The notes beneath the pieces were generated by a model. The model was not told the origin of the DNA and made no database searches. It was given only the letters and a program-made list of their open reading frames with translations. Positions 2,517-32,381 of a stretch of DNA of 32,569 nt are shown here, in pieces; the stretch's first letter is position 1; the number at the start of each line of letters is the position of its first letter. The position numbers and the translations under genes are program-made. Location of the stretch: positions 1 through 32,569 of the forward strand of contig JAFOBJ010000043.1 of the NCBI GenBank assembly GCA_017381865.1, written 5' to 3'. The stretch is from Bacteroidales bacterium (GTDB lineage Bacteria > Bacteroidota > Bacteroidia > Bacteroidales > F082).

Positions 2517-2517
2517 T

Positions 2518-11919: not shown

Positions 11920-12317
11920 GAGACGCCACAGGGGTGACGTCTCTACCAAATTCCATCAAAAAAAACAATCGACATTTTATTAATCGCCCCATGTAGAGAC
12001 GTCACTCCCGTGGCGTCTCTTCGGATTCCATAATTTAACGGACTTCTGGATTCATATCCGTGACATCTCTTCGAATTCCTGATTTCAACGGATGCCTGGA
12101 TTCATGAGACGCCACAGGGGTGACGTCTCTACCAATTTCCATCATAAAAAAACAATCGACATTTTATCAATCGCCCCCATGTAGAGACGTCACTCCCGTG
12201 GCGTCTCTTCGGGTTCCATAATTTAACGGACTTCTGGATTCACATCCGCAACGTCTCTAAATCACGATTCCCGAATATTCCTCATCCCCGGAGACGCCAC
12301 AGGGGTGACGTCTCTAC
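11920..12317. repeat. REP array 2 (five copies plus remnants), between plsC and the giant subtilase
   Basis: This fills the gene-free stretch 11880-12327. Palindromes lie at 11920-11943, 11996-12019, 12106-12129, 12184-12207 and 12291-12314, strictly alternating in orientation. GTAG is on the minus strand at the first, third and fifth copies and on the plus strand at the second and fourth. The composite unit repeats about every 186-188 bp (11920 to 12106, 11996 to 12184, 12106 to 12291), and each unit also carries a half element (near 12056 and 12244). The spacer sequence is shared with array 1 (for example AATTTAACGGACTTCTGGAT). No gene is seen here. Confidence 0.88.
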
Positions 12318-12327
12318 CAAAACACAA

Positions 12328-12357
12328 AAAAATAGAGACGTCTCCGTCTCTATTTTT
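12328..12357 (-). terminator. Intrinsic terminator of the 3199-aa subtilase gene
   Basis: A 13-bp perfect stem: AAAAATAGAGACG (12328-12340) with CGTCTCTATTTTT (12345-12357), loop TCTC. On the minus strand it ends in T5 and lies 26 bp after the stop codon. The stem again resembles REP arms. Confidence 0.85.
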
Positions 12358-12382: not shown

Positions 12383-15300
12383 TCAATAAACCACGATCTT
12401 TTGTGTCTTAGCACCGTCGCCGTTTATCAAGCGAACCACATATGCAGCTTGACTGAAATTGCTTACATTTATTCTATTGTTGTCGCTTGTGACTTCACTG
12501 CTATAAACTACGCGGCCCATCACATCGATGATTTGTACAACACCGTCTGTGTTGAAGATAAGTTCTTCACCTGACATGAAAGCGAACTTGTCTTGTTCAA
12601 CTGTGCTGTTACCCTTAGCGAATTTCAATACGAAGCGATTGCCGTTTTCTTGTGGTGTTGTTGTGAATGAATAACTTCTTGTCAACATATCTGTTTCAAC
12701 ACCATTGATTTTATCAACCAATACAACATGTTTGAATTCGCCTGTTGGTTCGATATGGATGTTATATTCTCCCATACGTTTTGCCTTGAATACAAGTTCT
12801 ACCTCAAGAGCGTCGCTGTTGCAGTTATAGATACCATAAGGAGCGCCGTTTTCTAAGACATAAACCAAAGCGATGTCTTCGTTGAAGTTCTTAATCTTAG
12901 GGAAGCCCTCTTGTTCACCTGCGAGGTTTACGATGACGTTGTCGTTACCAGCCTTACCAGAAGCGATGACATTCAATGAGCTTACTTCTTCGATGTTTCT
13001 GCTGCTTCTTTGGTTGTATGACAATGTTGGATTTGAACCTATAGCTTTTACGAAGAAACCGTCACCGACTTTAATTTCGCCGCTTGTCAGATAATTGTAA
13101 CCGCCTTGTTCATTAACCACTGCATAGCCGTTAGCCAAGTCATTTGCAGTTGTGTTAGCCCAGTTCATATTGAATGAGAATGGGTTACCGAGCAAGTAAT
13201 AGTTAGAGAGTTCATCTTCGCTGTTATAGCCTAAGTTAAATTCGTAAGACTTTTCATGGTGGAGGATACCTTTGAATGTAGCCACTGTTTCATTTTCGTA
13301 TGAAGCGAGGTAACCTACGCCTTGTTCAAATTCTGTCTCGAACTTGCTGAGTTCTGTGCCAGAAGAAGTGCCAAATGCTGATACCTTTTCGAAACCACCC
13401 TTGACGTCTGTCATCTTTGCTACTGGAGCAACTGATTTAGCTGAAGATGGTCCTATTGTAAGTTTGATGTTATTGATGTAGTATACATTTGCTGGAGATC
13501 CATATCTACCAGTATTTACTGCAGATCCATAGAATGTTGAAACATTGGCTAAATTTAATGCAGAATTTGAACTACAATAATACAAACCTCTCCATTCATT
13601 TATTTGTGAACTATAGAATTTATCGCAAATATCCTGTGAATAACCATAGTTAGTTCCTGTTTGGTCATAAACTGTAACGGCAATATTTCCACCTGTATAT
13701 TCAAATTCATTTTGGAAATAGATTGTTACCCAATCTCCTGCCATACCAAAGTTAAATGTACCTTGATATACTATATCTGAATCTGAGAATACACACCAAT
13801 CATAATTTCCACTAAATGATGCTTTATCTACATTCTGCATATATACAACGATATCACGGACATTATTGTTACCTGTAGCATGGTGGAAAGAAATACCCTT
13901 GATACTTCCTGATGTTACACCTATTTCACTTTGTGTATAAATTTGTTGTGATAATGTGTATTTGTAAGGAGCATAATTATATGTAGGAACTGATAATTGA
14001 GCAATAGTACCATCACCTATTGGAACTATTGTAGTACCTGCGGCATGTGTTGTAACACAAGCTTCATCTGATATTTCTGAATTTCCTACTTCGTTAACAG
14101 CGACAACTGTAAAGCAGTATTCTGTGCCTGCTGATAAGCCACTAACGACATAAGTATCTCCTGTTACACCTGTTGCAATTATAGCTCCTTCTTGGTAGAT
14201 ATTATAAGTTTCTGCACCTGCTGCTGACATTTTCAACTCTATAGTTGTTTCACCTGTTGGTGCAGCTGCTAATTCTGGTTTATTTGGAACTACAGGTGTA
14301 CAATTTATTACATAATTATAGCTAATTGTGCCAGAAGAACATGAGGTTTGATTATGGATTACTTTGCCGTCTTCGTATTTGACAGTAAATGTATTTTCAG
14401 ATTGATAGCTACCTGTTCCATAATATGTTATTGTCATTTCAGCATTTTGTGGGATTGCTAAAGTTTCTGTTTTTGTTTTATAAGATTGTCCTGAACCTAC
14501 AAATTCTATTCTTTTAGTAGTTCCACTATATGAAATTTCCAAATAGTTATTATTCCAACCGTCACCATAGCTGTCATTTAAAGTGAAGATTACATAACAA
14601 CCACTAAACGCATCTGTTTCAGCACAATCTTCATTTGATGCAGCAGACTCACCGCCAGAGTTAACAGCTTTCACTGTGAAGCAGTATTCTGTTCCTGCAT
14701 CCAATCCTTCAACAGTGTATGTTGTTCCTGTTACTCCTGTTGCAACAGAATTGCCACCTTGGTAAACATTATAACTTGTTGCTGTTGCTGATGCATTCCA
14801 TGTTAATACAATTGAATTTTCTCCATTTGATGTTGCGGCTAAGTTTGCAGGAGCTGATGGTGGTAACATTTTTGTTGTTGCACAAACTTCTGCTGTTGCT
14901 TCTGATTCTTCTCCCAATTCGTTAACAGATGTAACTTTATAGCAGTATGTTGTTAAAGCTGCTAAACCTTGAACTGTACATGTTGTTCCTGTTACATTTG
15001 CTACGAATTCTGAACCTTTATAAACATTGTAGCTTGTAGCGACCAAAACTGGGTTCCAACTCAAAGAGATTGATGAAGAACTTTCAGCTGTAGCAACCAA
15101 GTTTTGTGGTGCTGTTGGAGTTGGGTCAACTGACATACCAAGTTGAACTTGACTTACATAAGATTGTGAAGAACCCGTACCTAAATTTGACATATCATAT
15201 GGGCTACTACCGTATTTATATAAAGATCTTCCTGAAGCAGTATATCTATAGAAGGTATGGTAAGTACCATAATCTGTTCCTGTTTTATCATATACTGTAA

Positions 15301-18300
15301 TAATAATATTATCACCAGTATAGTCAAATGATTTATCAAAGTTAATCGTATACCATGTGTTCATAATACCTGAAATAGTAACACCACCTTCAAATACTTT
15401 ATCATTTTCACTTACAGAAACAAAATTATAACCATTGAATGTATTAAGTGTAGTGTTTGTAATATAAACCTCATATTGTTTTGTTACGGACATTACACTA
15501 TTACCCAATTTGAAAGCAACACTATTAATTTTACCACCGCTAACACCTAATTCTTCAGCTGTGTAAATTTGTTGTGACATTGAATAAGCTCTATAGTCGT
15601 ATACTGGCAAATAATAATTGCCATTTACAATAGGATTCTTATCTGTGCCAGTTTCAACAACTACGTCTATTAACACTTTTTCTTTTTCAGTTGTTGCACA
15701 AGCTGCTGCTGTTGCTGCAGATTCAAAGCTGCCATTAACAGATGTGATTGAGAAACAATATTCTGTTTCTGCTGCTAAACCGGTAATTGTGCAAGATGTT
15801 CCTGTTACGTTAGTTTTAATTTGTGTAGAACCTTGGTAAACATTATAGCTTGTTGCATTTGCAGCTTCATTCCATGTCAAAGAGATTGTTGAAGAGCCTG
15901 TAGCTGTAGCAACTAAGTTTTGAGGAACTGTTGGAGCATCATTTGTTCTAGCACAATCTTCTGATGCTTCTGATTCGCCGTATTCGTTAACTGCTGTAAC
16001 TGAGAAGCAGTAATCTGTACTTGGATTTAATCCTTCAACATTATAAGATGTTGCTGTTAAACCAGTAGCAATTCTTGCAGCACCTTGGTAAACGTTATAG
16101 CTTGTTGTATTTAACGTACTATTCCATGTCAAAGCAATTGATGTTACACCAGTTGCTTCGGCTGTTAATTCAGGTGCATTTGGCGCTTTAGGTGTACAAT
16201 CTGCTGTGAATGGAAATATATCACCGTTTGCTAATGTACCTTCTGCTGCAGAGACAAGCACTGTGCCGTTTTCACAAATAATATCAAATGAGTTTTCATT
16301 CAAGTTGTATGTTCCTACGAAAGTTACAGTAACTTCAGTGCCCTTTTGAATTTCCAAAATTTCTGTGTTTTCATAATTGCTTGAATTTAGTTGAGAACTA
16401 TAAGGCACTTTGTATTCTTTTGTAGTTGTTCCATAAGAAACTATTAATTTAGTTCCACTATCCCAACCATCGCCATAATTATCTCTTAAATTAAAATATA
16501 TCTTACACATTTCAATTTCTATGTCGCCAGCTGTGGCACCGGCTCTTTCTGAGTTTTGAGATTCACCGCCTTCGTTAACGGCTGTTACAGAATAATAATA
16601 TGTGTTTCCTGTTTCCAAACCTGTCACTTCATAAGAAAGCTCGCTTGTGTTGCCAATAATGTTGCCTTCGCCAAAGTGGATGTTATAGCTTGTTGCGCCA
16701 GCAACTGGATACCATGACAAGCTGATAGTTGTAAGATCTGTTGATCTTGCAACCACGTTTTGAGGTCTTGCAGTGATAGTTGTTGCACATACTTCAGCTT
16801 GAACGCCTTCTCCTGCTTCATTTTCAGCGCTTACATAGTAGCAATATCTTGTTGCACATTCTAAACCTTCAATAGTGAATGTTGTTTCGCTTGTCTGACC
16901 TATAGTAGTGCCTTCTGCATCATAGATATGATAGATTTCAGCTGTAGCATCTGCATCCCATGTCAAAGTGATTGCATTTGTATATACATCGTCAGTAGGC
17001 ATTTCTTGGCTACATGTAGCAATCAAGTTTGTTGGAGCTGCTGGTATTGCAGGTTCGTTGCCTGTAACAAATGAGAAACGAATTTGGTTTCTTTTTATTG
17101 GGTTATAGTAACCTGTTTTATTCACATCAGATGGGTCGAGTGGGTTTGGGAACATCGTGTTATAATAAGACATTCCTTTCAACTCATTTATTTGGTCCGC
17201 AGCGAATGTTATTGAGTTATTAGCTATGCCTGTATAGTCATAAACGCAGACAACCAAGTTGTTTCCAGTATATTCAAATGGAGTATTTAATTTGACGCGT
17301 ACCCATTCGTCGGCAATGCCATTGATAGTGATGTCGCCATCATAAACCAAATCAGCATTTGTCATAGATACCCAGTCTGTGCCACTTGTAAAGAATGCTT
17401 TTGTGGTTTGTTGAAGATATACTTTAACAGTACGTGTGCAAGGTTCTGACAAGCCACTCTTATATTTGAATGATACGGCTTTGATACTTCCTGTTTGTCC
17501 TATCTCTCCTCTGGTGTATATCTGTTGTGAGATTGAATAAGCGCAATTTGAATAGATAGGAAGAGCAGTACTTGTACTGTTGCCGTCGCCAATTATTACA
17601 TTTTCTGCTATTGGAGTGTCTGGGTCTTGTGCTGTAGTTATTGCACAAGCTTTATTTGATGCGCTAGATTCGCTGCCTTCTGCATTAACTGCAACTACTG
17701 TAAAACAGTGTTCTCCTGCTTCTAAGTCATAAACTGTATAAGTTGTTGAAGATATAGCTTCATCTACGAGACCTTCCTCGTCATATACTTTATAAGTTGT
17801 TGCATAAGCAGGGTCGTTCCATGTCAATTCTACTGTAGAACCAACAGCTGTAGCAGTTAATTGAGGAGCTTCTGGTGTTGGAAGAGGTGTATTGACTTCA
17901 TTAGATCCAGTTTGATTGGATTCACCTTTTGCATTAACTGCTGATACCGCGTAACAATATCCCATTCCTGGAGTGAGACCATCGAAAATGTATTCTGTTC
18001 CTTCAACATTAGGAACCTCTAAAGTGCCAATAATCAAATAAATATTATAGCTTGCAGCACCTGCCACTGCATCCCATGTCAGTTTTACAGAATAAGGACT
18101 TGTTGCTACTAATGCTACATTTTGAGGAGCAGTAGGTACTGTTATATCTGTTGTAGCACATGCTGGTGTAGATTTTGCAGATTCTATTCCGAGGAATTCA
18201 GAACCAACGGATGTAACAGTGAAACAATATTCAGTTGCTGGATTTAAGCCGTTTACTGTATAAGACATTGATGTTACACTAGCAATCTTTTCATCATCTT

Positions 18301-21300
18301 TGTATACATTATAGAGTTCTGCGCCTGATACAGCATTCCATGACAAGACTATTGAACTCTGACTTGCCATGTTAGCAACTAAGTTTTGAGGAGCTAAAGT
18401 TATTGTTTTGGTACATATTGCAGAAGGTTTTTCTGATTCACCTGCTACATTGACAGCAGTGACTGTATAGCAATATTCTGTGCCAGCTGCCAAACCTGTA
18501 ATAATCTCGTATGTGTTGTTTGTAGTACTAATAAAATTATCACCATTATAAACATTATAGCTTGTTGCACCTTCAACAGTGTTCCATGACAATGCTATTG
18601 TTGAAGTGCCTGTTGGTTCAGCCAAGAGGTTTTGAGGTGCTGTTGGCACTTCTGGTTCATAAGTGTCATCTTTATGGTTGAGCCATTCCAAATCTTTTGT
18701 TCCGTCATATTTATACAAGTCATAATCTGAATATGATGAAGGAACGAAATCTGAAATCTTTGAATATTTCAATGGTGAAGCGATGAATTGCCATCCTGTT
18801 TTGTTTGTGCCCCATTCGTCTGGGTTATTGATGTTCATTCTGAATGTTGCTGCAACATCTTCGTTGTTTTGGAATACTTGTGCGCCATCGTTGATGATGA
18901 AAGCGTCAGCGTCTGTATTTGCAAAATCACCAGTAACATTCAAGATAACGCCATCGTTAATTGTCAATGTTTTGCCTTCGTTAATAACCAATGAGTTAAC
19001 ATTGATATTTCCGCTTTCTATTGTAGCGTTAGCATCAATAATGACTTTTGCATCGTTTTCGTTTGGAAAACGTTTTGCTGTCCAGTTGTCTGTGTTAAAC
19101 CAGTTACCATCTTGAACGAACATATTAACGTTTTTACCAACTGGTTCTGACCATTCAATTCTAGATTCTGCACTGCCTTCAACAGCGATGCTGATATTGT
19201 CAACGCCGGTGCAATAACCATAACCAGCAACGTTTACGAATGCGATGTAGAATTGTTGTCCAACGTATGCACTCAAGTTAATTTCTACATCTGTCCATTC
19301 TTGAACATCTTTGTTGCTTGACCATAATTCTTCCCAAGTACCTGTATGAGTGTCTCTACTTAACATCACTTTCAAAGTGTTGATGTCTTTTCCCCAAGCT
19401 GGAGTGATGTACTTGAATGACAATTTTACATTACTTCCATTATGTTGAGTGTAATTCAATTTAGGTGATACCAAATAATATGGTAAAGCATTATAGGAGG
19501 TAGAATTTATGAATGCTGCTTTTCCTGAGTGTGCCTCGAATTCTACTGGAGTGTTTACTGCACCACTTGTAATGATTGTGGCAGTTGTCCATGAGTAGTT
19601 TGGCTTACTTCCGTCATAATAATAGTACCAAATAGCATCACTATTCGTATATGTATTTACGTCATTTGTAAGGGTAGTATTTTCAAAACCTTCTTCGTAA
19701 ATCTTTTCATTTGCTGCATAAGTATTAGCAACGCCATATTGGTAAACGCCGTCTTCTAAAGAATTCCAAGTGTTATCTGTGTATGAAGTTCCATTTACAT
19801 TTGTAGCAATGCTTGTTTCTGTGCCTGCCAAATAATCTTTTCTGTAGATGTTAGAACCTTCGCTTTCTGCTCCGTTTGTCCAAGTTACTGTTCCGTTATT
19901 AGCTACGACATTTGTTGGAGAAGGTCTGTCAGGGTTGTCTTCTGTTTGTATGCGAGCGTTAAGAGAATGTTCAGATTCTAAATCACCACGTTTTGAAGTT
20001 ACAGAATAAGCGTAAACTGTACCGAATTCCAAGCCAGAATCTGTGTAAGATGTAGATGTTGTGTTTGTGAGGTATGCTCCATCGCGATAAACATTGTAGC
20101 TTGTTGCGTTATTTGTAGCGTTCCAAGTCAAGTTGACATTAGTTCCGTTTGCTGTTGCATTAACTACAGGAGCTACAAATTCGTTAGAAATATTTATCTT
20201 AACGTTATAAGTTTTGCTAAAACCATTTATTGTGAGTTCAACGATATGATTATCTTCCACTAATGGGTCGATGCTTATGACGAATGTTGCTGTAGCTGTT
20301 GCACCAGCAGTCATTGAGCTGTAGTTTTTACTACCTGACACAATAGTGGTATAAGCGTCATTTGTTGAGATTGTCACATTTGCATTTGCAGAGCTTGAGC
20401 TTCCACCGTCGTTAATGAAAGAAAGTTCGAAGTCAAGGTTTGAGCCTGCTGTTAGATTTCTGGTGAAAGAATAAAGGTTTATAACAGGATCGGATGTGTT
20501 GAAGTTAACAGCTTGCACAGCAGCTAAAGCGTCGATTACGCCAGAACCTATGCTATTGTTTTTAGTAGCAGGTTTGTTAGATGCTGTTGTTTCAATGATT
20601 CTACATAAGTCAGCTGGAGTGAGGTTAGGGTTTTTCTCTAACATAAGAGCCATAACACCTGCAACGCAAGGAGTTGCTTGTGATGTTCCTGATGATTTTC
20701 TATATCCACTAGTGGCATTATCAAGAGATACTAATAAATGTCCAGGCGCACAGATGTCAGGACGGATAAGACCGATGCCAGGATTATAAGGATAGTCGTT
20801 ATAATCAGGGATGTCTTGCCATGTTACAGGACCATGGGATGACAATCCGATGACGGAATTGTTACTGTCGACAGCACCAATGCTAATTACGCTTGAGGTT
20901 CCGCTTGCGTTAGCTTGTTGGTCAGGATGAATCCATGGTGGAGGACAGTTACCAGGAGTACGTACGTTATGAGGAACTGCCAATGTTGCTAAGTCGTTAC
21001 CTTCATTACCTGCTGCTACTGCTGCTACGATATTCATTTCCAAAAGAGTTTCAAAAGTAGCACGCATAGTAGCTCTACCTGCATCGGTAATAGCAGTTGA
21101 TGTTTTTTTAAAACCTTGAGAGATACTTAAAATGTCTGCTTCTTTTTCTACTGCCCATTCTATACCTGTTATAAACTGGCTGAGACTTAAACCTGTGGCG
21201 TCATGTATCTTGATACACATCACTTGTGCGTCAGGTGCTATACCAGTCATCGTTCCGCCTGTTCCGTCACCAGCTATGATACCAGAGCAGTGTGTTCCGT

Positions 21301-21982
21301 GACCGCTGTGGTCTGATGGGAGTTGTCCTGGATTAACGACATTATATCCGTGTTGTGCGTTGCCATCCCATAAATTGTTCTTAATGTCGACGTGGTTTGT
21401 ATTGACACCAGAGTCGAGAACTGCTACGACGACGCCTTTACCAGTGTAACCCAAGTCCCATACTTTATCAGCCTTGACTTGTGTAACATGTTCTGCAATA
21501 GTAGCTGATGAGGCTTGAGTGCCACGGCTTTCTATTTCGCTTTCAATACCACAAAATGTGTCTTCTTTAGCATTATAAATGATTGAAGCCACATCAGGAT
21601 GTGATGCTAATTGATAGATGACGTCACGTTTTGCCTTACAGTTGATGAAGTTGGCAATCCAGTGTGTCTTGATGTCAATAACGCTGTTGCTTCTTTCTTC
21701 AGCGTTGATGACAGACATGACGTCTCTTTGGGATTTTTCTGCGAATTTCTTTAATTCGTTGATAATGAGTTCGCGACGCACTTCTTTGCTGTCGCTTTTG
21801 CAGTTCAAGACTGCGAAATCATCGGTCGTCATCTGTGATTTAAACATGATGTTGACGTCGATGTAGTCGTTACCTTTTTGGTTTAAGATTTTCTGTAATT
21901 CATTGTCAATTACGTTGTTCTGTGCATTTGCAAATAATGTACACAAGAACAGACTTGCTACAAGTACAAATATTTTTTTCAT
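12383..21982 (-). CDS. Giant secreted S8 subtilase with Fn3 array and T9SS sorting domain (paralogue 1)
   Basis: 3199 aa. Signal peptide 1-20 (FANA|QNN); I9-like propeptide about 21-150; S8 domain about 155-490 with Asp190 (AVLDSG), His228 (GHGTH), oxyanion Asn326 (AAGNEG) and Ser434 (SGTSQATP), so apparently active. Next come a CARDB-like domain (about 500-610), two Fn3 domains (about 615-775), a cleaved-adhesin/MAM-like jelly roll (about 775-950), and a C-terminal module starting near 950. That module is interrupted after LNHKDD by about 1770 residues: eleven Fn3 domains with three X and two Y modules. It resumes at LSKFETEFEQG and ends in a type A T9SS sorting domain (VQIIDVMGRVVY, AAYVVRL). 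It probably digests extracellular protein at or beyond the cell surface; the Fn3/X/Y region may bind substrate (inference). It has its own promoter box and terminator. Its N-terminus is very close to paralogue 3. Confidence 0.92.
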   Translation of the reverse strand: MKKIFVLVASLFLCTLFANAQNNVIDNELQKILNQKGNDYIDVNIMFKSQMTTDDFAVLNCKSDSKEVRRELIINELKKFAEKSQRDVMSVINAEERSNSVIDIKTHWIANFINCKAKRDVIYQLASHPDVASIIYNAKEDTFCGIESEIESRGTQASSATIAEHVTQVKADKVWDLGYTGKGVVVAVLDSGVNTNHVDIKNNLWDGNAQHGYNVVNPGQLPSDHSGHGTHCSGIIAGDGTGGTMTGIAPDAQVMCIKIHDATGLSLSQFITGIEWAVEKEADILSISQGFKKTSTAITDAGRATMRATFETLLEMNIVAAVAAGNEGNDLATLAVPHNVRTPGNCPPPWIHPDQQANASGTSSVISIGAVDSNNSVIGLSSHGPVTWQDIPDYNDYPYNPGIGLIRPDICAPGHLLVSLDNATSGYRKSSGTSQATPCVAGVMALMLEKNPNLTPADLCRIIETTASNKPATKNNSIGSGVIDALAAVQAVNFNTSDPVINLYSFTRNLTAGSNLDFELSFINDGGSSSSANANVTISTNDAYTTIVSGSKNYSSMTAGATATATFVISIDPLVEDNHIVELTINGFSKTYNVKINISNEFVAPVVNATANGTNVNLTWNATNNATSYNVYRDGAYLTNTTSTSYTDSGLEFGTVYAYSVTSKRGDLESEHSLNARIQTEDNPDRPSPTNVVANNGTVTWTNGAESEGSNIYRKDYLAGTETSIATNVNGTSYTDNTWNSLEDGVYQYGVANTYAANEKIYEEGFENTTLTNDVNTYTNSDAIWYYYYDGSKPNYSWTTATIITSGAVNTPVEFEAHSGKAAFINSTSYNALPYYLVSPKLNYTQHNGSNVKLSFKYITPAWGKDINTLKVMLSRDTHTGTWEELWSSNKDVQEWTDVEINLSAYVGQQFYIAFVNVAGYGYCTGVDNISIAVEGSAESRIEWSEPVGKNVNMFVQDGNWFNTDNWTAKRFPNENDAKVIIDANATIESGNINVNSLVINEGKTLTINDGVILNVTGDFANTDADAFIINDGAQVFQNNEDVAATFRMNINNPDEWGTNKTGWQFIASPLKYSKISDFVPSSYSDYDLYKYDGTKDLEWLNHKDDTYEPEVPTAPQNLLAEPTGTSTIALSWNTVEGATSYNVYNGDNFISTTNNTYEIITGLAAGTEYCYTVTAVNVAGESEKPSAICTKTITLAPQNLVANMASQSSIVLSWNAVSGAELYNVYKDDEKIASVTSMSYTVNGLNPATEYCFTVTSVGSEFLGIESAKSTPACATTDITVPTAPQNVALVATSPYSVKLTWDAVAGAASYNIYLIIGTLEVPNVEGTEYIFDGLTPGMGYCYAVSAVNAKGESNQTGSNEVNTPLPTPEAPQLTATAVGSTVELTWNDPAYATTYKVYDEEGLVDEAISSTTYTVYDLEAGEHCFTVVAVNAEGSESSASNKACAITTAQDPDTPIAENVIIGDGNSTSTALPIYSNCAYSISQQIYTRGEIGQTGSIKAVSFKYKSGLSEPCTRTVKVYLQQTTKAFFTSGTDWVSMTNADLVYDGDITINGIADEWVRVKLNTPFEYTGNNLVVCVYDYTGIANNSITFAADQINELKGMSYYNTMFPNPLDPSDVNKTGYYNPIKRNQIRFSFVTGNEPAIPAAPTNLIATCSQEMPTDDVYTNAITLTWDADATAEIYHIYDAEGTTIGQTSETTFTIEGLECATRYCYYVSAENEAGEGVQAEVCATTITARPQNVVARSTDLTTISLSWYPVAGATSYNIHFGEGNIIGNTSELSYEVTGLETGNTYYYSVTAVNEGGESQNSERAGATAGDIEIEMCKIYFNLRDNYGDGWDSGTKLIVSYGTTTKEYKVPYSSQLNSSNYENTEILEIQKGTEVTVTFVGTYNLNENSFDIICENGTVLVSAAEGTLANGDIFPFTADCTPKAPNAPELTAEATGVTSIALTWNSTLNTTSYNVYQGAARIATGLTATSYNVEGLNPSTDYCFSVTAVNEYGESEASEDCARTNDAPTVPQNLVATATGSSTISLTWNEAANATSYNVYQGSTQIKTNVTGTSCTITGLAAETEYCFSITSVNGSFESAATAAACATTEKEKVLIDVVVETGTDKNPIVNGNYYLPVYDYRAYSMSQQIYTAEELGVSGGKINSVAFKLGNSVMSVTKQYEVYITNTTLNTFNGYNFVSVSENDKVFEGGVTISGIMNTWYTINFDKSFDYTGDNIIITVYDKTGTDYGTYHTFYRYTASGRSLYKYGSSPYDMSNLGTGSSQSYVSQVQLGMSVDPTPTAPQNLVATAESSSSISLSWNPVLVATSYNVYKGSEFVANVTGTTCTVQGLAALTTYCYKVTSVNELGEESEATAEVCATTKMLPPSAPANLAATSNGENSIVLTWNASATATSYNVYQGGNSVATGVTGTTYTVEGLDAGTEYCFTVKAVNSGGESAASNEDCAETDAFSGCYVIFTLNDSYGDGWNNNYLEISYSGTTKRIEFVGSGQSYKTKTETLAIPQNAEMTITYYGTGSYQSENTFTVKYEDGKVIHNQTSCSSGTISYNYVINCTPVVPNKPELAAAPTGETTIELKMSAAGAETYNIYQEGAIIATGVTGDTYVVSGLSAGTEYCFTVVAVNEVGNSEISDEACVTTHAAGTTIVPIGDGTIAQLSVPTYNYAPYKYTLSQQIYTQSEIGVTSGSIKGISFHHATGNNNVRDIVVYMQNVDKASFSGNYDWCVFSDSDIVYQGTFNFGMAGDWVTIYFQNEFEYTGGNIAVTVYDQTGTNYGYSQDICDKFYSSQINEWRGLYYCSSNSALNLANVSTFYGSAVNTGRYGSPANVYYINNIKLTIGPSSAKSVAPVAKMTDVKGGFEKVSAFGTSSGTELSKFETEFEQGVGYLASYENETVATFKGILHHEKSYEFNLGYNSEDELSNYYLLGNPFSFNMNWANTTANDLANGYAVVNEQGGYNYLTSGEIKVGDGFFVKAIGSNPTLSYNQRSSRNIEEVSSLNVIASGKAGNDNVIVNLAGEQEGFPKIKNFNEDIALVYVLENGAPYGIYNCNSDALEVELVFKAKRMGEYNIHIEPTGEFKHVVLVDKINGVETDMLTRSYSFTTTPQENGNRFVLKFAKGNSTVEQDKFAFMSGEELIFNTDGVVQIIDVMGRVVYSSEVTSDNNRINVSNFSQAAYVVRLINGDGAKTQKIVVY
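13446..14045 (-). repeat. Module X, third copy in paralogue 1
   Basis: About 190-200 residues, limits approximate. Shared landmarks of module X: a SQQIYT line followed by an acidic (E-I/L-G) turn, G-x-I-x-x-(V/I)-(S/A)-F, a V-Y strand, FEYTG-x-N, and VYD-x-TG. This copy is followed by the resumed C-terminal module instead of Fn3 domains. Confidence 0.75.
14300..14612 (-). repeat. Module Y, second copy in paralogue 1
   Basis: About 105 residues with the NDSYGDGWNNN turn near its start, a TETLAIP strand and a final Cys-Thr-Pro. The YGDGWN turn occurs in other Bacteroidota secreted proteins; no function is assigned here. Limits are approximate. Confidence 0.7.
15125..15690 (-). repeat. Module X, second copy in paralogue 1
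   Basis: Same landmarks as the other X copies: SMSQQIYTAEELG, GGKINSVAF, FDYTGDN, VYDKTGTDYG. Flanked by two Fn3 domains on each side. Limits are approximate. Confidence 0.75.
16190..16531 (-). repeat. Module Y, first copy in paralogue 1
   Basis: About 110 residues: CKIYFNLRDNYGDGWDSG near the start, TEILEIQKGTEVTVTF in the middle and a closing Cys-Thr-Pro. It aligns by eye with the copy at 14300-14612 and sits between two Fn3 pairs. Confidence 0.7.
17053..17625 (-). repeat. Module X, first copy in paralogue 1
   Basis: Landmarks: AYSISQQIYTRGEIG, GSIKAVSFKY, RTVKVYLQQTTKAFF, DLVYDGDITI, FEYTGNN, VYDYTG, ending IRFSFVTGNE. It is preceded by four Fn3 domains and followed by two. Limits are approximate. 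Confidence 0.75.
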
Positions 21983-22124: not shown

Positions 22125-25100
22125 TTAAAAGACCAAGACTTTTTGGGTTTTTATATCATTTCCGTTCACACGGCGTACAATATAAACTGCTTCATTTAAA
22201 TGGCCGACATTGATTCTTGAAGTGCCATTCAATTCATTGTTGTAAACTACTCTACCCATCACATCGATGATTTGTACTAATCCATCGCCTTCGATGATGA
22301 GTTCATCACCTGATTGGTAAACGAAGTTTTCTTCTGATGTAGCTTTCTTACAGAATTTAATAGAGAAGCGGCCTTTACCTTCTTCTGTTGAATATACTGT
22401 GAAAGCATATTCGCCTTCAAGCATATTTACTTCTTTTCCTGTAATATTATCTACGAGAGTTACATATTCGAAGTTGCCGTCAGCATTGACTCTGATGATG
22501 TGAGTTCCTGGTTTTGCTGCGCGGAATCCTAATTTAACTTCATTAACATCTTCGTCAAAGCTGAAGATACCGTATTTTGTACCTGCATTTTCTACATATA
22601 TTTCAGCGATGTTTTCGTTGAGGTTATCGAGTTTTGTGAAGCCTTCTTCTTCTTGGCCAGCGAGGTTGATGATTACGTTGTCGCTACCATAGATATTTGA
22701 AGCAGAGATGTCGAGGCTTTCGTGTTTTTCAATGCGAGTTCTTACATTATGATTGTAAGTAAGTTCTGGATTAAATCCTGTTGACTTAACCATGAAGCCG
22801 TCGCCAACATTGATTGTTCCGCTTGTGTGATAATCGTAAGAACCGTCAACATTGCTGATTGTTGCGTAACCATTATAAACGTCGCTCACTGTCATGTTAG
22901 TCCAATCCATATTGAACATGAATGGGTTACCCAAGAGGTAGAAGTTATTGTAATGGTTTTCAGCGTCGAATGCTTTAACATCTGTGAATGAGAATGTTCT
23001 AGCATTGTTGATGATACCTTCGAATTCTGCTGTTGTTTCAGCTTCATAAGAAACGATATAACCGCGTCCTTGTTGGAATGTTGTCTCGAAGTCAGTGCCG
23101 TGGTTTTTATGGTTAATCCATTGCAACTCTTGAGTTCCGTCATATTTGAACAAGTCGTAGTCTGTTTCGCTTTCAGGTTTGAAGCCATCTATCTTAGCGT
23201 TGGTAATTGGAGATGAGATAAATTGCCAGCCGCCTTGGTGGTCGTTGCCCCATGACATTGGTCTGTCGATGAGCATATTGTATGTAGCTACTACATTATC
23301 ATTGTTTTGGAATACTTGTGCGCCATCGTTGATGATGAAAGCCTTAGGATTTGCGTTCAAGAATAATCCGTTGACTGTTAAAGTAGCGCCACTGTTGATT
23401 GTCAAAGAACCGCTATTGATTGTGATAGACTTAGCTACAATGCTGCCGCTTTCAATTGTAGCATTGCCATCGATGATGATGTCTTCGGTTTCTGTTGGCA
23501 CTGAACCTTTGCTCCAGTTGCTTGCAACGTTCCATGCACCACTGCCACCGAATGTGTTGATTGATGGATTTACAGATACAGAGAATGATGATGTGTTTGT
23601 TACAAGACTGCTGAAATTAACATTAGATATTGTAATATCGTCAATTGCCATTGCCATATTATCTTCACAATTAAAATGTCTTATAGCAATCCAAATTTTT
23701 TGACCTTTGTATGATTCTAAATCTACACTATAACGAGTCCATTTTAGAGCATCTGTAGTAATTTCAACAACTGGGGCAACAGCTTCAACTTCGATAGCAT
23801 CAGAAGTTACACCGTCTTTCTTAGCGTAGAAACTATATTTACCTGCAGTGCTTGTCTTGAATGACTTGTCATTTGTAGTAAGTTGAACTGCATTTTGAGT
23901 TCCTGTTGTGTACCAAATTTCAGCATCATCAGGTGTTACTGTGAATGTAACATAGTCTGAATTGTCAGCTGTGAATTGTGTTTTATTAACAGAGATTGTT
24001 GGTTTTACAGGTTCTGGTTCTGGATCCACTGGAGTGTCGCCGCCGTCTCCATCTGTTACAAATGTGAACTGAACCCAACTTAAAGAGTTGTAACCAGTGG
24101 AACTAGTAACATTTGGACATGTAAATGTTGTTTCAGCAGTGGATTGCAATGTTGGATCATACGCTAATCCTGCATATTTATAAAGTTGTCTAAGTATCAA
24201 TGTATTGCTATCATCTCTTTTATTAGGTCTATATGCTGAAAAAGTTACATTACCAGATCCAGCTGTACCTGTACAATCATACACACACAATAAAACATTG
24301 TTACCAGTGTACTCAAATTCTTCATTTAAATTCAAAGTATACCATCCTGTTGCAGACATTACAATTGTTCCTTCATAAACCAAATCACTCTCATTCATCA
24401 AGAAAGGTTTTTTTGTAGTTGCATCAAATCTATCAGCAGTAATATTAGCCATATAAATTTTTATCTTTCTTGTATATGTCGTACCAATAGTTTTTACATT
24501 AAATGCGACACTTGTAATCTTACTTCCATTTGTCAAGCCATTTAATTCCTCAGCAAGATATATTTGTTGAGATGTTGAGTATGCGTACTTTGTGTTAATA
24601 GGAACATAGTTAGAAGAACCTGCCTTCACATAATCACCTACTGTACCATCTATTGTCACAACATCTCCTCTAGTATCACCGCCTCTTTGTCCTGATTTTG
24701 CTGTTGGAGCTGTAGTTGGGAATGTCCATTCCCATCCATCTTTAGTTTCAAAATCATTTTCACCTAAAGTAGCATTTCCACTTGTAGATACAAATACTCC
24801 AAAGTGTTCCCCTGCATATTTATATCCAGAAGATTTAGATCTCGCATAAAATTCAAATGTAGTTGACTCAGTTGGTTCCACTTGCATTGGTGAAACTATA
24901 AAATCATTTGGAGTTATTGATTGATATGTAGCATTACAATAAGACTCACTTATTATATGTCCACCTCCAGAAGGAGAATAACTACTATTACTTTGATGTT
25001 GATTATTTGCATCCATCTGATGTTGATCTGCTATAGAAGAATGATACCATGTGTGTTCATCTCTATTTGCATTTATAGTAGTCCATCCGTTAAGGTCATT

Positions 25101-28100
25101 ATCAAATGTGTATGTAAGAGTTTGTACTCCACCAGTTCCATCGCTTTCATATTCAACATCAACATCAAAATTCAAGTTATGATTTAAAGGTGCGTCATTT
25201 GAAATTTGTATTCTGAATGTTGCTGTTGCTGTTCCACCTGCTGCAATAGAACCTAAGTTATATGTGCCATCAAGAATAGTTACATATTGGTCTGCACATT
25301 TCAAAATTGCATTTGTTACAGATGGTGTAGCTGCATTACCATTATTAATTAATGTAGCTGTCAATGTTGTTTCACCAACTGGTTTTTCCAAATTAAATGA
25401 TTGTAATACGATATTACTTGAACCAGCGCTTGTTGTCACAACTAGTCTTTCTGATTTTTCAGATTCACCTGTTTCACTAACACTTGTCACTTCATAATAA
25501 TATTCTGTTGCTGGTTCTAATCCGTTATCAAAATATGATGTTGAAGATGTGTAACCTACGAAAGCACCATTACGATAGACATTGTAGCTGATAGCATTTG
25601 TTGTTTGGTTCCATTTTAAAGTGACAGAATTTTCACTCTTAGCTGTAACAACTAAACCTTTAGGAGCTTTAATGTCATTTTTGATAGTAACAGAGAATGG
25701 CAAGTCGAATGTGAAATAATCAGCTTGTGTAGGGTCTGTTACCATTGAAAGTATATTCAAATTAAAGTTGATAACAGATTTATTAGGTGTATTTTCGCTG
25801 AATTTAACATTGACTGTCTTTGTAACTTCTTCACCAGATGCAAGAGCTTTCAAAGCATCTGTTGCTTTATTTGTAATTGTAACATAAGTACCATTGTCAC
25901 AAGTCAATGTATAATAAGCTCTTGCTTTGAATTGATTTGCACCGTCATTAAGAATTGTGAAATTAAAATCAACAGATGTTTCACCATCAATGTAAACTAC
26001 ATCTTGGGTAAAGTTCTTAAGAGCTGCACTGTATTGTATTTGTTGTGTTGTTGCAGAAGCTTCATTTGAGTGTTCAAATTCAACGTTTGAGTAGACAGCA
26101 GCAACTGTATAATTATATGTAGTATTATGTGTTAAATTGCTGTCTTCGTAAGAATTAGTCTTAACGTTAGCTACTTTTGCGCCATCACGATAGATGTTGT
26201 AGCTTTGAGCGTCTTCAACAGCGTCCCATGTCAATGTTATTGATGTTTCGCCTTTTGCTGTAGCGACTAAGTTTTTAACAGCTGCCAATTCTTTCATATT
26301 ATAGACATAGATGCTGAACATATTCTTGTCGTCACCACTATATGTAGGAACGCTATGGTTATCCATCATAACATTTGTAAACAAGACATCGTCGATATTC
26401 AAGGCATCAACGCCGAGACCTTCGTCAGCTTTTGCTGGGTCGGCCCATTCTTCGCTAGTGAAGAAGTGACGGATAGCCACATAAATTTCTTGTCCTGCGT
26501 ATGCGCCCAAGTTGACTGTATATTTATTCCATGATGTGCCTTGTTGTTTTGTGATTGTCCAGTCTTGCAACATTGTGAAGTCATTAGCTGAACTATTACC
26601 GCTTGTAGAGACAGCCAAACCGAAGTGTTCTGGGTAATAAGTTGCATGGTGAGCGCGAGCGTAGAAGCTAACTTCAGTATTTCTTGTTGCTAAGACTTTA
26701 GTTGGAGAAACGAGGTAATTGTCAATAGGAGAAGCGTATTGTACAGAGCTATATCCAACTGTTTCACTCATAAGGTGTCCTTTTCCAGAGTGAGAATCTT
26801 TTCCTTTTTTGCTATGTTCTAAGGCTTTTGTGCTATGCCACCAAGGTTCTGCAACATTATTTGTAACTGCGAAAGAAGTCCAGCCTTCGTTATCGTTTTC
26901 GAATTCATAAACTAAATTTGTTGCTTCTTCTGATTTTGAATAAGTTTCCATGAAGAAGTCGACTCTATAGTTGTGAGGAGTTTCTTTGTCAGCGCGGATT
27001 GTGAAAGAACCTGTGCTTGTTCCGCCAACTTCCATTGAACCTACTGTAGCTGAATTGTCAACGATTGTTATGTATTTCAAGTCACCAGACAATGCTGAAA
27101 GAGTAAGTTCTGTATTACCATTCATTGCTGCGGTACCATTGTTCTTCATTGTGACATTGATGTTTACGTCTTGATTAACATTGATAGAACCTGGTGTTAC
27201 GCTTGAGAAAACGACATCTGGAGTTGATATTATTTTTACAGACAAAGGATATTTCCAAGCGAAGTCGCCACTTGTTATATCAAGTGTGAAGTTAGCGACG
27301 TGACCATTAGGTGTTTGTGAGTTAACATTGAGGGTGAATTCAGCGTCTTTTGTATTACCGGCACTAATTTGTCCTAATGTAACTGTAGGAGTTGAGATTG
27401 TTACATATTCGTCGTTTGCCAAAGACAATGTTGCAGATGTTGCAGCAGCGCTTGAGCCTTTACCGACGTTTTTAACTTTAACTGTTATTGCTTTTCCGTC
27501 ACCTTGAGTAATGACTTGAGGAGCAACTGATTCGAATTTGATATAAGGCACTTTAGTTCCTTCTGCAACTGCGTTAACAGCTGCCAAAGCATCGACGCGA
27601 CCTGCTCCTACCACGTTATTTTTTGTTGCAGGTTTTGAAGCTGCTGTTGTTTCAATGATTTCTGAGATTTGAGCTGGAGTCAATGTTGAGTTTTTCTCTA
27701 ACATAAGAGCCATCACGCCAGCCACTACAGGAGTAGATTGTGATGTACCGCTCAACATTCTATATTTATCAGATTGAAGGTGGTTCAAAGAGTAGAGCAA
27801 ATTACCTGGAGCTGAGATGTCAGGACGGATAAGACCCATTGATGCGCCTTCGTTATATGGATAATCATTGTATTTTGTATCTTCCCATGTTGAAGGACCT
27901 TGTGAAGAAGAACCGATGAGGTCGCTACCGCCGACGCAGACAACACTAGAAAGGCCGCCTTTGAGAGTTTGGTCAGGGTTGCTCCATGGAGCTGGACAAG
28001 CTGCTGGATAGTCGACATTTTTAGGTGCGCCCCAGCTATTGCCGTCGTTACCTGCTGCTGCACAAACGATGACACCTGCTTTCAATACGTTATCGAATGT

Positions 28101-29039
28101 TGAACGTATTGTTTCTATTTGAGCTACAGTCAATTGTGTTTTCTTGAAACCAAGAGACATGCTCAAAATGTTAGCGCCGTTTTCCACTGCAAACTGAACA
28201 CCGCTAAGCATATCAGCAGGAGTACCTGTACCAGCACCACCGACGATTTTCACTGTCATCAATTTTGCGTCTGGAGCCACACCTGTTGATGTTCCTGATG
28301 TTCCGTTACCGCAAACGATACCAGCGCAGTGAGTTCCGTGACCGTTGTCGTCGCTGATGTCACTGTTATCTGCAATGAAGTTCCAACCGTTGACGAGTTG
28401 GCCATCTACCTCACCTTCCCACAAGTTGGATTCGATGTCTTTATGTTCGTAGTTTGTTCCTGAGTCTAACACAGCAACAACGACGTTTTTACCTGTATAA
28501 CCTTGGCTCCAAACGTCATCGGCATTGATAGTGAGAATGTGGTGAGCAGCTGTTGCTCTTGACTTCTCAATTTCTGCACTAGAAACTTCTTTTACTTCTT
28601 CAGGAGATATGACTTGGATTTCTTTGTTATAACCCAAAGCTTTGATGTCAGGGTGAGATGATAATTTGTAAATGACATCGCGAGTAGCTTTACAATTGAT
28701 TGAGTTAGCAATCCAAAGGCAATTGATTTCTGCGACATTACCGTTCAATTCTTCTGCTTTAAGAACTGATAATACGTCAGATTGGATTTCTTCTGAGAGG
28801 CCTTTAAGTTCACTGACGACGATTTCTCTCTTGATAGACTTGTCAGCGACTCTTTTTGTCTTTTGTGACAATTGTTTTGCATTGATCTGTGATTTGAAAT
28901 AGATATTGACATCTATAAGATCATTGCTTTTTTGATTTAAAACATTTTGTAGCTCAGTTTCAATAACTTCAATATTCTGAGCATTTGAAAAAACACATAA
29001 AAATAGTGTAAAGAACAGGGTAAAAAAAACTTTTTTCAT
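22125..29039 (-). CDS. Large secreted S8 subtilase with T9SS sorting domain (paralogue 2)
   Basis: 2304 aa from the ATG of MKKVFFTL; a longer reading adds 11 residues before the signal peptide and is unlikely. Signal peptide 1-20, I9-like propeptide about 21-150, S8 domain about 160-490 with Asp192 (AVLDSG), His234 (GHGTH), Asn331 (AAGNDG) and Ser433 (SGTSQSTP). After that: two CARDB-like domains (about 500-700), a jelly-roll/MAM-like domain (EFENDNEGW to about 880), then Fn3, CARDB-like, Fn3 and CARDB-like domains. A second jelly roll (TFDNDLNGW) is split by a module X plus a Big-like domain. Then comes the uninterrupted C-terminal module (NWSKGSVPTETEDIIIDG through FETTFQQGRGY) and a type A sorting domain (VQIIDVMGRVVY). 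It is more divergent in the protease domain than paralogues 1 and 3 are from each other. Probable extracellular endopeptidase. Confidence 0.92.
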   Translation of the reverse strand: MKKVFFTLFFTLFLCVFSNAQNIEVIETELQNVLNQKSNDLIDVNIYFKSQINAKQLSQKTKRVADKSIKREIVVSELKGLSEEIQSDVLSVLKAEELNGNVAEINCLWIANSINCKATRDVIYKLSSHPDIKALGYNKEIQVISPEEVKEVSSAEIEKSRATAAHHILTINADDVWSQGYTGKNVVVAVLDSGTNYEHKDIESNLWEGEVDGQLVNGWNFIADNSDISDDNGHGTHCAGIVCGNGTSGTSTGVAPDAKLMTVKIVGGAGTGTPADMLSGVQFAVENGANILSMSLGFKKTQLTVAQIETIRSTFDNVLKAGVIVCAAAGNDGNSWGAPKNVDYPAACPAPWSNPDQTLKGGLSSVVCVGGSDLIGSSSQGPSTWEDTKYNDYPYNEGASMGLIRPDISAPGNLLYSLNHLQSDKYRMLSGTSQSTPVVAGVMALMLEKNSTLTPAQISEIIETTAASKPATKNNVVGAGRVDALAAVNAVAEGTKVPYIKFESVAPQVITQGDGKAITVKVKNVGKGSSAAATSATLSLANDEYVTISTPTVTLGQISAGNTKDAEFTLNVNSQTPNGHVANFTLDITSGDFAWKYPLSVKIISTPDVVFSSVTPGSINVNQDVNINVTMKNNGTAAMNGNTELTLSALSGDLKYITIVDNSATVGSMEVGGTSTGSFTIRADKETPHNYRVDFFMETYSKSEEATNLVYEFENDNEGWTSFAVTNNVAEPWWHSTKALEHSKKGKDSHSGKGHLMSETVGYSSVQYASPIDNYLVSPTKVLATRNTEVSFYARAHHATYYPEHFGLAVSTSGNSSANDFTMLQDWTITKQQGTSWNKYTVNLGAYAGQEIYVAIRHFFTSEEWADPAKADEGLGVDALNIDDVLFTNVMMDNHSVPTYSGDDKNMFSIYVYNMKELAAVKNLVATAKGETSITLTWDAVEDAQSYNIYRDGAKVANVKTNSYEDSNLTHNTTYNYTVAAVYSNVEFEHSNEASATTQQIQYSAALKNFTQDVVYIDGETSVDFNFTILNDGANQFKARAYYTLTCDNGTYVTITNKATDALKALASGEEVTKTVNVKFSENTPNKSVINFNLNILSMVTDPTQADYFTFDLPFSVTIKNDIKAPKGLVVTAKSENSVTLKWNQTTNAISYNVYRNGAFVGYTSSTSYFDNGLEPATEYYYEVTSVSETGESEKSERLVVTTSAGSSNIVLQSFNLEKPVGETTLTATLINNGNAATPSVTNAILKCADQYVTILDGTYNLGSIAAGGTATATFRIQISNDAPLNHNLNFDVDVEYESDGTGGVQTLTYTFDNDLNGWTTINANRDEHTWYHSSIADQHQMDANNQHQSNSSYSPSGGGHIISESYCNATYQSITPNDFIVSPMQVEPTESTTFEFYARSKSSGYKYAGEHFGVFVSTSGNATLGENDFETKDGWEWTFPTTAPTAKSGQRGGDTRGDVVTIDGTVGDYVKAGSSNYVPINTKYAYSTSQQIYLAEELNGLTNGSKITSVAFNVKTIGTTYTRKIKIYMANITADRFDATTKKPFLMNESDLVYEGTIVMSATGWYTLNLNEEFEYTGNNVLLCVYDCTGTAGSGNVTFSAYRPNKRDDSNTLILRQLYKYAGLAYDPTLQSTAETTFTCPNVTSSTGYNSLSWVQFTFVTDGDGGDTPVDPEPEPVKPTISVNKTQFTADNSDYVTFTVTPDDAEIWYTTGTQNAVQLTTNDKSFKTSTAGKYSFYAKKDGVTSDAIEVEAVAPVVEITTDALKWTRYSVDLESYKGQKIWIAIRHFNCEDNMAMAIDDITISNVNFSSLVTNTSSFSVSVNPSINTFGGSGAWNVASNWSKGSVPTETEDIIIDGNATIESGSIVAKSITINSGSLTINSGATLTVNGLFLNANPKAFIINDGAQVFQNNDNVVATYNMLIDRPMSWGNDHQGGWQFISSPITNAKIDGFKPESETDYDLFKYDGTQELQWINHKNHGTDFETTFQQGRGYIVSYEAETTAEFEGIINNARTFSFTDVKAFDAENHYNNFYLLGNPFMFNMDWTNMTVSDVYNGYATISNVDGSYDYHTSGTINVGDGFMVKSTGFNPELTYNHNVRTRIEKHESLDISASNIYGSDNVIINLAGQEEEGFTKLDNLNENIAEIYVENAGTKYGIFSFDEDVNEVKLGFRAAKPGTHIIRVNADGNFEYVTLVDNITGKEVNMLEGEYAFTVYSTEEGKGRFSIKFCKKATSEENFVYQSGDELIIEGDGLVQIIDVMGRVVYNNELNGTSRINVGHLNEAVYIVRRVNGNDIKTQKVLVF
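24045..24670 (-). repeat. Module X inside the second jelly-roll domain of paralogue 2
   Basis: About 205 residues with the X landmarks YSTSQQIYLAEELNG, SKITSVAFNV, RKIKIYMANIT, ESDLVYEGTI, FEYTGNN, VYDCTG, ending VQFTFVTDGDGG. It is followed by an acidic-proline linker (PVDPEPEPVKP) and a Big-like domain before the host jelly roll resumes near 23765. Confidence 0.75.
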
Positions 29040-29069
29040 TTCTAAAAAAATTAAAATAAAATGAACGGG

Positions 29070-29102
29070 CAAATATAAGGCTTTTTTCTTTACAATATCA
29101 AA
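29070..29102 (-). promoter_or_regulatory. Promoter of the 2304-aa subtilase gene
   Basis: TATATTTG at 29070-29077 with a TTTG at 29099-29102, 21 bases upstream. Both match the Bacteroidota -7/-33 pattern. The -7 box is 30 bases before the ATG. Confidence 0.65.
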
Positions 29103-32252: not shown

Positions 32253-32277
32253 AAAATCAATGAGACTTAATATTTTG

Positions 32278-32285
32278 CAAATATA
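32278..32285 (-). promoter_or_regulatory. TATATTTG -7 box of the 1026-aa subtilase gene
   Basis: Exact TAnnTTTG match on the minus strand, 25 bases before the chosen ATG; it has the same octamer as the other two subtilase genes. No strong -33 TTTG. Confidence 0.6.
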
Positions 32286-32381
32286 AAAATAATTGCGAGA
32301 ATTTTGAACTAAGAACTTTTTGTAATGAGCCATGAGCGAACAAAGTCACGTCCCCTGCATTCATGACCATAATGATATAAA

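What the first reader, a model, noticed from the sequence alone, without database searches (positions are those of the whole stretch)
13362..18665. 5.3 kb in-frame Fn3/X/Y array sits inside a C-terminal module that is continuous in the neighbouring paralogue
In paralogue 2 the stretch LFKYDGTQELQWINHK is followed at once by TDFETTFQQGRGYIVSYE. In paralogue 1 the matching halves (LYKYDGTKDLEWLNHK and FETEFEQGVGYLASYE) are about 1770 residues apart, with eleven Fn3 domains, three X and two Y modules between them. The reading frame and both halves of the host module are kept. This is a clear case of array insertion inside a domain instead of growth at a domain border. The mechanism is not visible.
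Basis: partly seen in the sequence, partly recalled or inferred. Interest (0 to 1): 0.82.

Follow-up and report, generated by a model that had tools for sequence, protein, structure and literature searches.

The report
Domain array spliced into recurrent loop
A gut bacterium's secreted protease carries a 16-domain side arm inserted in the middle of another folded domain, and related bacteria have repeatedly ended up with other domains in exactly the same small loop, so this loop seems to act as a natural docking point for building new surface proteins.

Summary
Confirmed and extended. P1 (window 12383-21982, minus strand; 3,199 aa; S8 protease with a T9SS sorting domain) has a C-terminal host module interrupted by 1,776 residues: 11 Fn3, 3 X and 2 Y modules, in frame. 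An orthologue in a yak-gut MAG (L051) carries a shorter related array (X-X-Fn3-Fn3-Y) in the same loop; three other orthologues (L053, L055, L106) have the ordinary 10-12-residue loop. Two trees on different parts of the protein pair P1 with L051. The array is a derived insertion that changed size in place. The main new result is that the loop is reused: 10 of 48 related host modules carry 160-1,783 residues there. Seven guests are complete choice-of-anchor-J domains, one is an X module, two are arrays; the host tree needs at least six changes, and one common origin of the seven is rejected. No other large insert was found in those 48 modules; two distant relatives have one in the next loop. 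Misassembly is unlikely. Insertion of domains is a known kind of event; repeated filling of one loop and a 16-domain guest are the unusual parts.

The parts
12383..21982 (-). P1: S8 subtilase, Fn3, MAM-like domain, interrupted host module, T9SS type A sorting domain (3,199 aa)
20540..21442 (-). P1 S8 catalytic domain (residues 181-481; triad motifs VLDSG, HGTHCSG, GTSQATP)
19940..20182 (-). P1 Fn3 domain outside the array
19187..19606 (-). P1 MAM-like domain (residues 793-932; PF00629 22.9 bits, below its cut-off 26.4)
18671..19132 (-). P1 host module, N-terminal half
13343..18670 (-). The inserted array (1,776 aa): 11 Fn3, 3 X, 2 Y and end linkers
17621..18658 (-). Array modules F1-F4 (Fn3)
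17060..17620 (-). Array module X1 (no Pfam family)
16526..17059 (-). Array modules F5-F6 (Fn3)
16196..16525 (-). Array module Y1 (DNYGDGWD motif; no Pfam family)
15689..16195 (-). Array modules F7-F8 (Fn3)
14300..15688 (-). Array modules X2-F9-F10-Y2, the stretch that best matches the L051 array
14045..14299 (-). Array module F11 (Fn3)
13460..14044 (-). Array module X3
13343..13459 (-). C-terminal linker of the array, partly shared with L051 (..GGF...GTEL..)
12995..13342 (-). P1 host module, C-terminal half
12389..12553 (-). P1 T9SS type A sorting domain (TIGR04183 31.5 bits, cut-off 23; PF18962 29.5, cut-off 27)
22125..29072 (-). P2: neighbouring S8 paralogue, 2,315 aa
22725..23561 (-). P2 host module, continuous; unfilled loop at about 23097-23105
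24732..25118 (-). P2 second Cleaved_Adhesin/choice-of-anchor-J domain, N-terminal part
23769..24731 (-). X module plus Ig-like region inserted inside that P2 domain (about residues 1448-1768); absent from L057 and L106
23636..23768 (-). P2 second Cleaved_Adhesin-type domain, C-terminal part (minimum extent)
29172..32333 (-). P3: third S8 paralogue, kin of P1 (58.7% over 965 aa), no host module

Best explanation
The host module is a C-terminal unit of T9SS-exported surface proteins in this genus. One of its loops, between the W-x-N-x-K strand and the F-x-x-x-F-x-x-G-x-G-Y strand, tolerates insertion of whole domains. In the common ancestor of P1 and its L051 orthologue, a module or short module set (X/Fn3/Y type) entered this loop of an S8 protease; it then gained or lost modules in place and is now the 16-module arm of P1. 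In other lineages the same loop was filled separately, with a choice-of-anchor-J domain (from at least two sources) or an X module. SHOWN here: the array, its place, its derived state, at least six changes of state at this loop on the host tree, and the completeness of the seven choice-of-anchor-J guests. INFERRED: that the two halves still fold as one domain with the array as a side arm, that the loop is surface-exposed, that guests come by recombination from the many copies of such modules in the same secretomes, and that the arm serves binding (substrate or surface) while the protease feeds peptides to the dipeptidyl peptidases encoded nearby (S46, M49, S9).
For: Halves match one profile at adjoining positions. 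L051 orthologue with 726 residues at the same site by the same cut that gives 1,783 for P1; L053 and L055 and L106 without. Host tree of 48 rows with insert columns left out: P1+L051 97/85 within 98/95 and 99/97 clades; 10 inserted rows need 6 changes, 5 forced by starred branches, bootstrap range 6-6. Separate N-terminal tree: P1+L051 95/99. Guests: 7 of 7 choice-of-anchor-J inserts span positions 2-6 to 161-162 of the 162-position NF038128, all over its cut-off; one clade for these seven is rejected (p-AU 2.9e-07); the G066:C24 insert is one X module. Among the 55 profile hits of 46 of these rows the largest extra length inside a hit is 33 residues, at the site itself. SprA, the T9SS pore, is in the genome (2,556 bits).
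Against: No structure was predicted and none is solved for the host core: the weak profile matches to RemZ and Mfa5 lie in regions that the papers do not resolve. P1's own Fn3 modules are 32-63% alike, so how the array grew is not visible. The inserted choice-of-anchor-J domains cluster more than by chance (3 changes against a shuffled mean of 6.6, 0 of 500 shuffles as low; starred branches force only 1), which fits some spread of guests between host modules; the C85 guest has a very long branch. Inserted host modules also cluster (2 of 500 shuffles as low). P3 has no host module and cannot inform polarity. The genomes are drafts, MAGs where named. The 8 genomes were partly chosen because they had splits.
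Confidence: 0.82

Rival explanations
1. One or a few original loadings of the loop were passed between host modules by homologous recombination or gene conversion through the shared host flanks. This would explain the shared site without special tolerance of the loop.
For: The seven choice-of-anchor-J guests cluster more than by chance; several host modules per genome offer partners (9 in the own genome); a 41-bp identical block links the P1 and P2 host modules.
Against: One clade of the seven guests is rejected (p-AU 2.9e-07; 0% of 200 bootstrap trees), and two further guest types (X module, Fn3/X/Y array) sit in the same loop, so several separate loadings remain.
Confidence: 0.25
2. The array is ancestral in this protease family and was cleanly lost in the continuous orthologues.
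For: Loss of a loop insert is possible; L051 has fewer modules than P1, so modules have been gained or lost in place.
Against: Two or three clean losses would be needed inside the P1 clade (L055, and L053 and L106 together or apart), each restoring a 10-12-residue loop, and continuous modules dominate.
Confidence: 0.06
3. The two halves are two separate small domains, and the array is an ordinary linker-region array between them.
For: No structure prediction was possible; no Pfam or NCBIfam family over cut-off describes the module.
Against: The conserved unit spans the site in 310 census rows against 11 split modules (22 partial rows unresolved), with conserved residues on both sides; the loop is short and of steady length.
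Confidence: 0.08
4. The array is an assembly artefact: a misjoin or a repeat expansion.
For: The genome is a 99-contig draft, 79% complete.
Against: Longest exact repeat touching the array within the window is 21 bp; open frame throughout; an orthologue in another MAG has a related array at the same point.
Confidence: 0.02
5. The insertions were made by a dedicated recombination or mobile system that targets this loop.
For: The ten site-1 inserts fall in one loop; X modules also sit in another loop of a distant host module (L062) and inside a different domain in P2.
Against: I did not search systematically for a DNA motif, integrase or target duplication; the flanks are diverged, several guest types occur, and tolerance of the loop plus recombination explains the pattern without a device.
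Confidence: 0.07

Closest known systems
A1-B-A2 domain insertion in proteins generally (PMC13114784; abstract, section 2.1 and one passage read)
   Same: One domain's sequence is interrupted by another complete domain while both halves are kept.
   Different: That survey's abstract gives a median of 115 residues for inserted domains and calls most cases single-level; here one guest is 16 modules (1,776 aa), and one loop is filled in several lineages by different guests. The terms hotspot, same position and tandem do not occur in its main text.
[quoted passage not shown] start of abstract seen in the listing)
   Same: Guest domain inside a host domain of the same enzyme class. Three of 17 S8 proteins found by motif here also carry about 160-190 extra residues in a catalytic-domain loop.
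   Different: The P1 array sits in a C-terminal module, not in the catalytic domain.
vWF domain inserted between strands of the D2 domain of the adhesin Mfa5 (PMC7835359; section 7 and passages read)
   Same: Bacteroidota surface protein with a T9SS signal and a nested domain.
   Different: Single guest, different host fold; its own match to our host core (residues 784-890, E 0.004) lies outside the modelled residues 99-664.
RemA and RemZ of Flavobacterium johnsoniae (PMC10994853; passages read)
   Same: T9SS cargo; weak profile similarity of RemZ 677-778 to the host core (E 3e-4) and of RemA 895-985 to the N-terminal part of the module (E 7e-7).
   Different: The RemZ match is continuous; per the paper only the RemZ C-terminal domain is well resolved.

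Membership tests
T9SS type A cargo (TIGR04183 / PF18962) | C-terminal sorting domain above curated cut-off | tested here: met
   P1 31.5 bits (cut-off 23) and 29.5 (cut-off 27); P2 29.1 and 27.4
T9SS type A cargo (TIGR04183 / PF18962) | T9SS translocon in the genome | tested here: met
   SprA, TIGR04189, 2,556 bits, cut-off 200; 0 of 14 control genomes match. Other T9SS genes not searched
T9SS type A cargo (TIGR04183 / PF18962) | Export and surface attachment observed | not testable with these tools
   needs experiment
Peptidase S8 (PF00082) | S8 profile above cut-off with Asp, His, Ser motifs | tested here: met
   E 3.9e-51; VLDSG, HGTHCSG, GTSQATP in order
Domain insertion (A1-B-A2) | Host sequence continuous in relatives and split by whole guest modules here | tested here: met
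Domain insertion (A1-B-A2) | Host halves fold as one domain | not testable with these tools
   Structure prediction switched off; conservation across the site is indirect support
Choice-of-anchor-J / Cleaved_Adhesin (guests in other genes) | Full-length profile match above cut-off | tested here: met
   site-1 guests: 7 of 7 over the NF038128 cut-off, full length; 4 of 5 scanned over the PF07675 cut-off
X module of the array | Membership of a named Pfam family or a solved fold | tested here: not met
   Pfam: nothing above cut-off for X1, X2, X3; PDB profile search: none at E 0.1
Y module of the array | Membership of a named Pfam family or a solved fold | tested here: not met
   Pfam: nothing above cut-off for Y1, Y2; PDB profile search: none at E 0.1

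The most novel reading that the evidence does not exclude
The host module is an evolutionary display socket: one fixed loop in a C-terminal module of T9SS cargo into which whole adhesion or binding domains have been loaded many times, including a 16-domain looped arm whose two ends both return to the same loop, giving the genus a way to add surface functions next to the anchor without touching the catalytic end.
Probability: 0.37. Interest if true: 0.78.

Novelty: new variant of a known kind. Interest (0 to 1): 0.62.

Why it matters
Domain insertion is common, but one loop filled again and again by different guests, with filled and empty relatives side by side, is a natural insertion-scanning experiment. 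It gives a naturally validated insertion site, a test set for methods that predict permissive sites, and a route by which gut Bacteroidales can diversify surface proteins. A 16-domain guest closed into a loop also poses a concrete question for the T9SS pore, which would have to pass two domain strings side by side (inference).

Tried and rejected

Recent tandem duplication as the source of the array: not visible. P1's Fn3 copies are 32-63% alike, its X copies 34-43%, Y1/Y2 37%; the best cross-species pairs are 55-64% (X2, F10, Y2; F9 at 56% is not distinctive). Module order hints at a repeat X-F-F-Y-F-F, but the identities do not support it.

Right-only profile hits, several in giant ORFs of other genomes, first looked like more splits. 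On a sensitive scan some proved continuous but divergent (for example L063, L074), three had halves 22-48 residues apart (L076, L081, L083), and L064, L072, L073, L075, L077 and L082 stayed unresolved; seven weak partial rows were not read (six; one). None is counted as an insertion.

Across the order, 60 genomes including the own one: 16 doubtful regions were fetched and read by scan and eye; no inserted domain was seen at the site. One (G133:C34) has the two halves in two overlapping reading frames.

Donors of the guests: the trees of guest and resident domains do not name donors; the search profiles were built from inserts, which biases the sample.

Two ORFs of L104 (G099) stop soon after the second loop; not pursued.

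Literature: searched for domain insertion with T9SS, Fn3, cargo, hotspots, subtilases and same-loop use (65 for Mfa5); the listed titles and abstract starts (a capped part of the hits in most calls) showed no report of this loop. That covers the held open-access library only.

Full report
Observation. P1 and P2 are adjacent S8 proteases on the minus strand (12383-21982, 22125-29072), with a third, P3, beside them (29172-32333). Both P1 and P2 end in a T9SS type A sorting domain over the curated cut-off, and the genome encodes SprA. The insert spans 13343-18670 and contains, in order, FFFF-X-FF-Y-FF-X-FF-Y-F-X: 11 Fn3, 3 X, 2 Y. X and Y have no Pfam family over cut-off and no PDB relative by profile at E 0.1.

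Is it real? The longest exact repeat touching the array within the window is 21 bp, so collapse or expansion by the assembler is unlikely; the frame is open throughout; and an orthologue in a different MAG has a related array at the same point (below).

Host module. A profile of the three continuous modules of the own genome (A1: P2, G000:C38, G000:C94) finds P1 as two hits, positions 2-157 and 157-277. The module has no Pfam or NCBIfam family over cut-off. A broader 26-sequence core profile (A3) shows conserved residues on both sides of the site (W-x-N, G-x-G-Y, GNP). Census with A3 in 32 genomes of the genus: own genome 11 rows, 23 others 98, 91 and 72 rows, and 8 genomes chosen because they held splits or orthologues 82 rows. 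Of these 354 rows I class 310 as continuous across the site (profile start at or before 40, end at or after 88), 22 rows as the two halves of 11 split modules, and 22 rows as partial and unresolved. Ten splits are at this loop (site 1), one (G005:C47) at the next loop. This is a hand count from the listings at E up to 0.05, so a few of the weakest continuous rows may be chance.

Polarity. Scanning named genomes with the right half gave 9 loci. L051 (yak cecum MAG RGIG9490) is an orthologue of P1 (62% over 1,132 aa) with 726 residues (X-X-F-F-Y and linkers) at the same site. L053 (RGIG4154), L055 (SIG107) and later L106 (G063:C124) are orthologues with a continuous module (53%, 53%, 58%). The tree of host module plus tail pairs P1 with L051 at 97/85 inside 98/95 and 99/97 clades whose other rows are continuous; a tree of the N-terminal region gives the pair 95/99. 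P2 lies in another S8 subfamily. So the array is a derived insertion. The L051 array corresponds best to P1 X2-F9-F10-Y2 (58% over 478 aa; X 63-64%, F10 64%, Y2 55%, F9 56%); P1's modules are mostly less like each other than that (Fn3 32-63%, X 34-43%, Y 37%). Either L051 lost modules or P1 gained diverged ones: the array changed in place.

The loop is reused. In the own genome, G000:C85 has a choice-of-anchor-J domain in the same loop while its sister module G000:C38 (100/100) is continuous. A search of 99 genomes of the genus, own included (the list is cut, only the best matches are shown), and reading of regions added G063:C22, G063:C101, G049:C93, G049:C5, G066:C95 and G046:C4 (choice-of-anchor-J type) and G066:C24 (one X module). 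All seven choice-of-anchor-J guests match NF038128 over nearly its whole length. On the tree of 48 modules the 10 inserted rows require 6 changes, 5 of them forced by well-supported branches: P1+L051; C85; G066:C24; G063:C101; G046:C4; and a clade of four shorter proteins that sits among continuous homologues of similar N-terminal layout. Changes may be gains or losses and do not by themselves tell fresh insertion from transfer of a filled loop between host modules. The guests bear on this in both directions: the seven choice-of-anchor-J guests cluster more than by chance (3 changes, shuffled mean 6.6, 0 of 500 shuffles as low; starred branches force only 1), but a single clade of them is rejected (p-AU 2.9e-07; 0% of 200 bootstrap trees; the C85 guest has a long branch). 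With the X guest and the array this leaves at least three guest types and at least two sources of the commonest one. No other large insert was found in these modules: the largest extra length inside any of 55 profile hits is 33 residues, at the site itself in L089. If ten loops were equally likely, six independent events in one loop would have a chance of about 1e-5, three about 1e-2 (my estimates; they ignore ascertainment). Two distant relatives carry a guest in the next loop, after GYLYAN: an X module (L062) and a choice-of-anchor-J domain (L103). A sample of 60 genomes across the order, own included, gave no insert at site 1 outside the own genome.

Nesting elsewhere. P2's second Cleaved_Adhesin-type domain is itself interrupted by an X module and an Ig-like stretch (about residues 1448-1768), absent in L057 and L106. 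Three of 17 S8 proteins found by motif have 160-190 extra residues in one catalytic-domain loop. So whole modules inside other domains are not rare in this secretome.

How it most likely works. Shown: position, derived state, reuse, complete guests. Inferred: the loop is an exposed turn, so a guest whose ends lie close together leaves the host fold intact; guests come by recombination from the many module copies in these genomes (47 distinct choice-of-anchor-J-type and 32 X domains in the ORFs read, inserts included), sometimes perhaps passed on between host modules; the arm binds substrate or surface. The window also encodes S46, M49 and S9 peptidases, which fits a protein-degrading locus; that link is an inference from neighbourhood. 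A 16-module guest in one loop must be a closed arm with both ends at the host; whether T9SS handles that in a special way is open.

Known and new. Domain insertion is an established kind of event (PMC13114784: 20% of multidomain proteins, median inserted domain 115 residues). PA domains inside S8 domains (listing) and a vWF domain inside D2 of Mfa5 are precedents. What I found no report of, in the listings, is this host module as a recurrent insertion site or an array of this size as guest. I rate it a new variant of a known kind.

Note on names: G040-G043 (reached through L050, L051, L053, L055) appear to be the same genomes as G056, G068, G057 and G047, judged from identical contigs and coordinates; they are counted once.

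Noticed in passing
window 23769-24731: P2's second Cleaved_Adhesin-type domain carries its own X + Ig-like insertion; orthologues L057 and L106 are continuous.
   Followed up: partly
L060 (G000:C38), L055 450-2744, L094: About 160-190 extra residues in one loop of the S8 catalytic domain, between the GPVTW and LIRPD motifs, in 3 of 17 S8 proteins found by motif; the other 14 have gaps of 12-22.
   Followed up: partly
window 10042-12332: REP-like array: several copies of a palindromic GAGACGCCAC..GTGACGTCTC element in two orientations on both sides of the acyltransferase gene, next to a Y1-transposase-like ORF at 9423-9992 (PF01797, 22.2 bits, just under cut-off 23).
   Followed up: partly
window 18864-18904 and 23302-23342: 41 bp identical between the P1 and P2 host modules in an otherwise diverged stretch; possible local gene conversion.
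   Followed up: no
window 187-9256: Peptide-degrading gene set: S46, M49 and S9/DPP IV peptidases in the same window as three S8 proteases.
   Followed up: no
window 29172-32333: P3 is 58.7% identical to P1 over 965 aa but passes almost directly from the MAM-like domain to the sorting tail: host module absent.
   Followed up: partly
L062 (G005:C47) and L103 (G113:C1): A guest domain in the next loop of the host module, after GYLYAN: an X module and a choice-of-anchor-J domain.
   Followed up: partly
L089 (G057:C35 module): A 33-residue acidic, low-complexity loop at the insertion site, intermediate between empty and filled; could be a remnant or a spacer.
   Followed up: no
L130 (G133:C34): A host module whose two halves lie in two overlapping reading frames in another family of the order; frameshift or sequencing error.
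   Followed up: no
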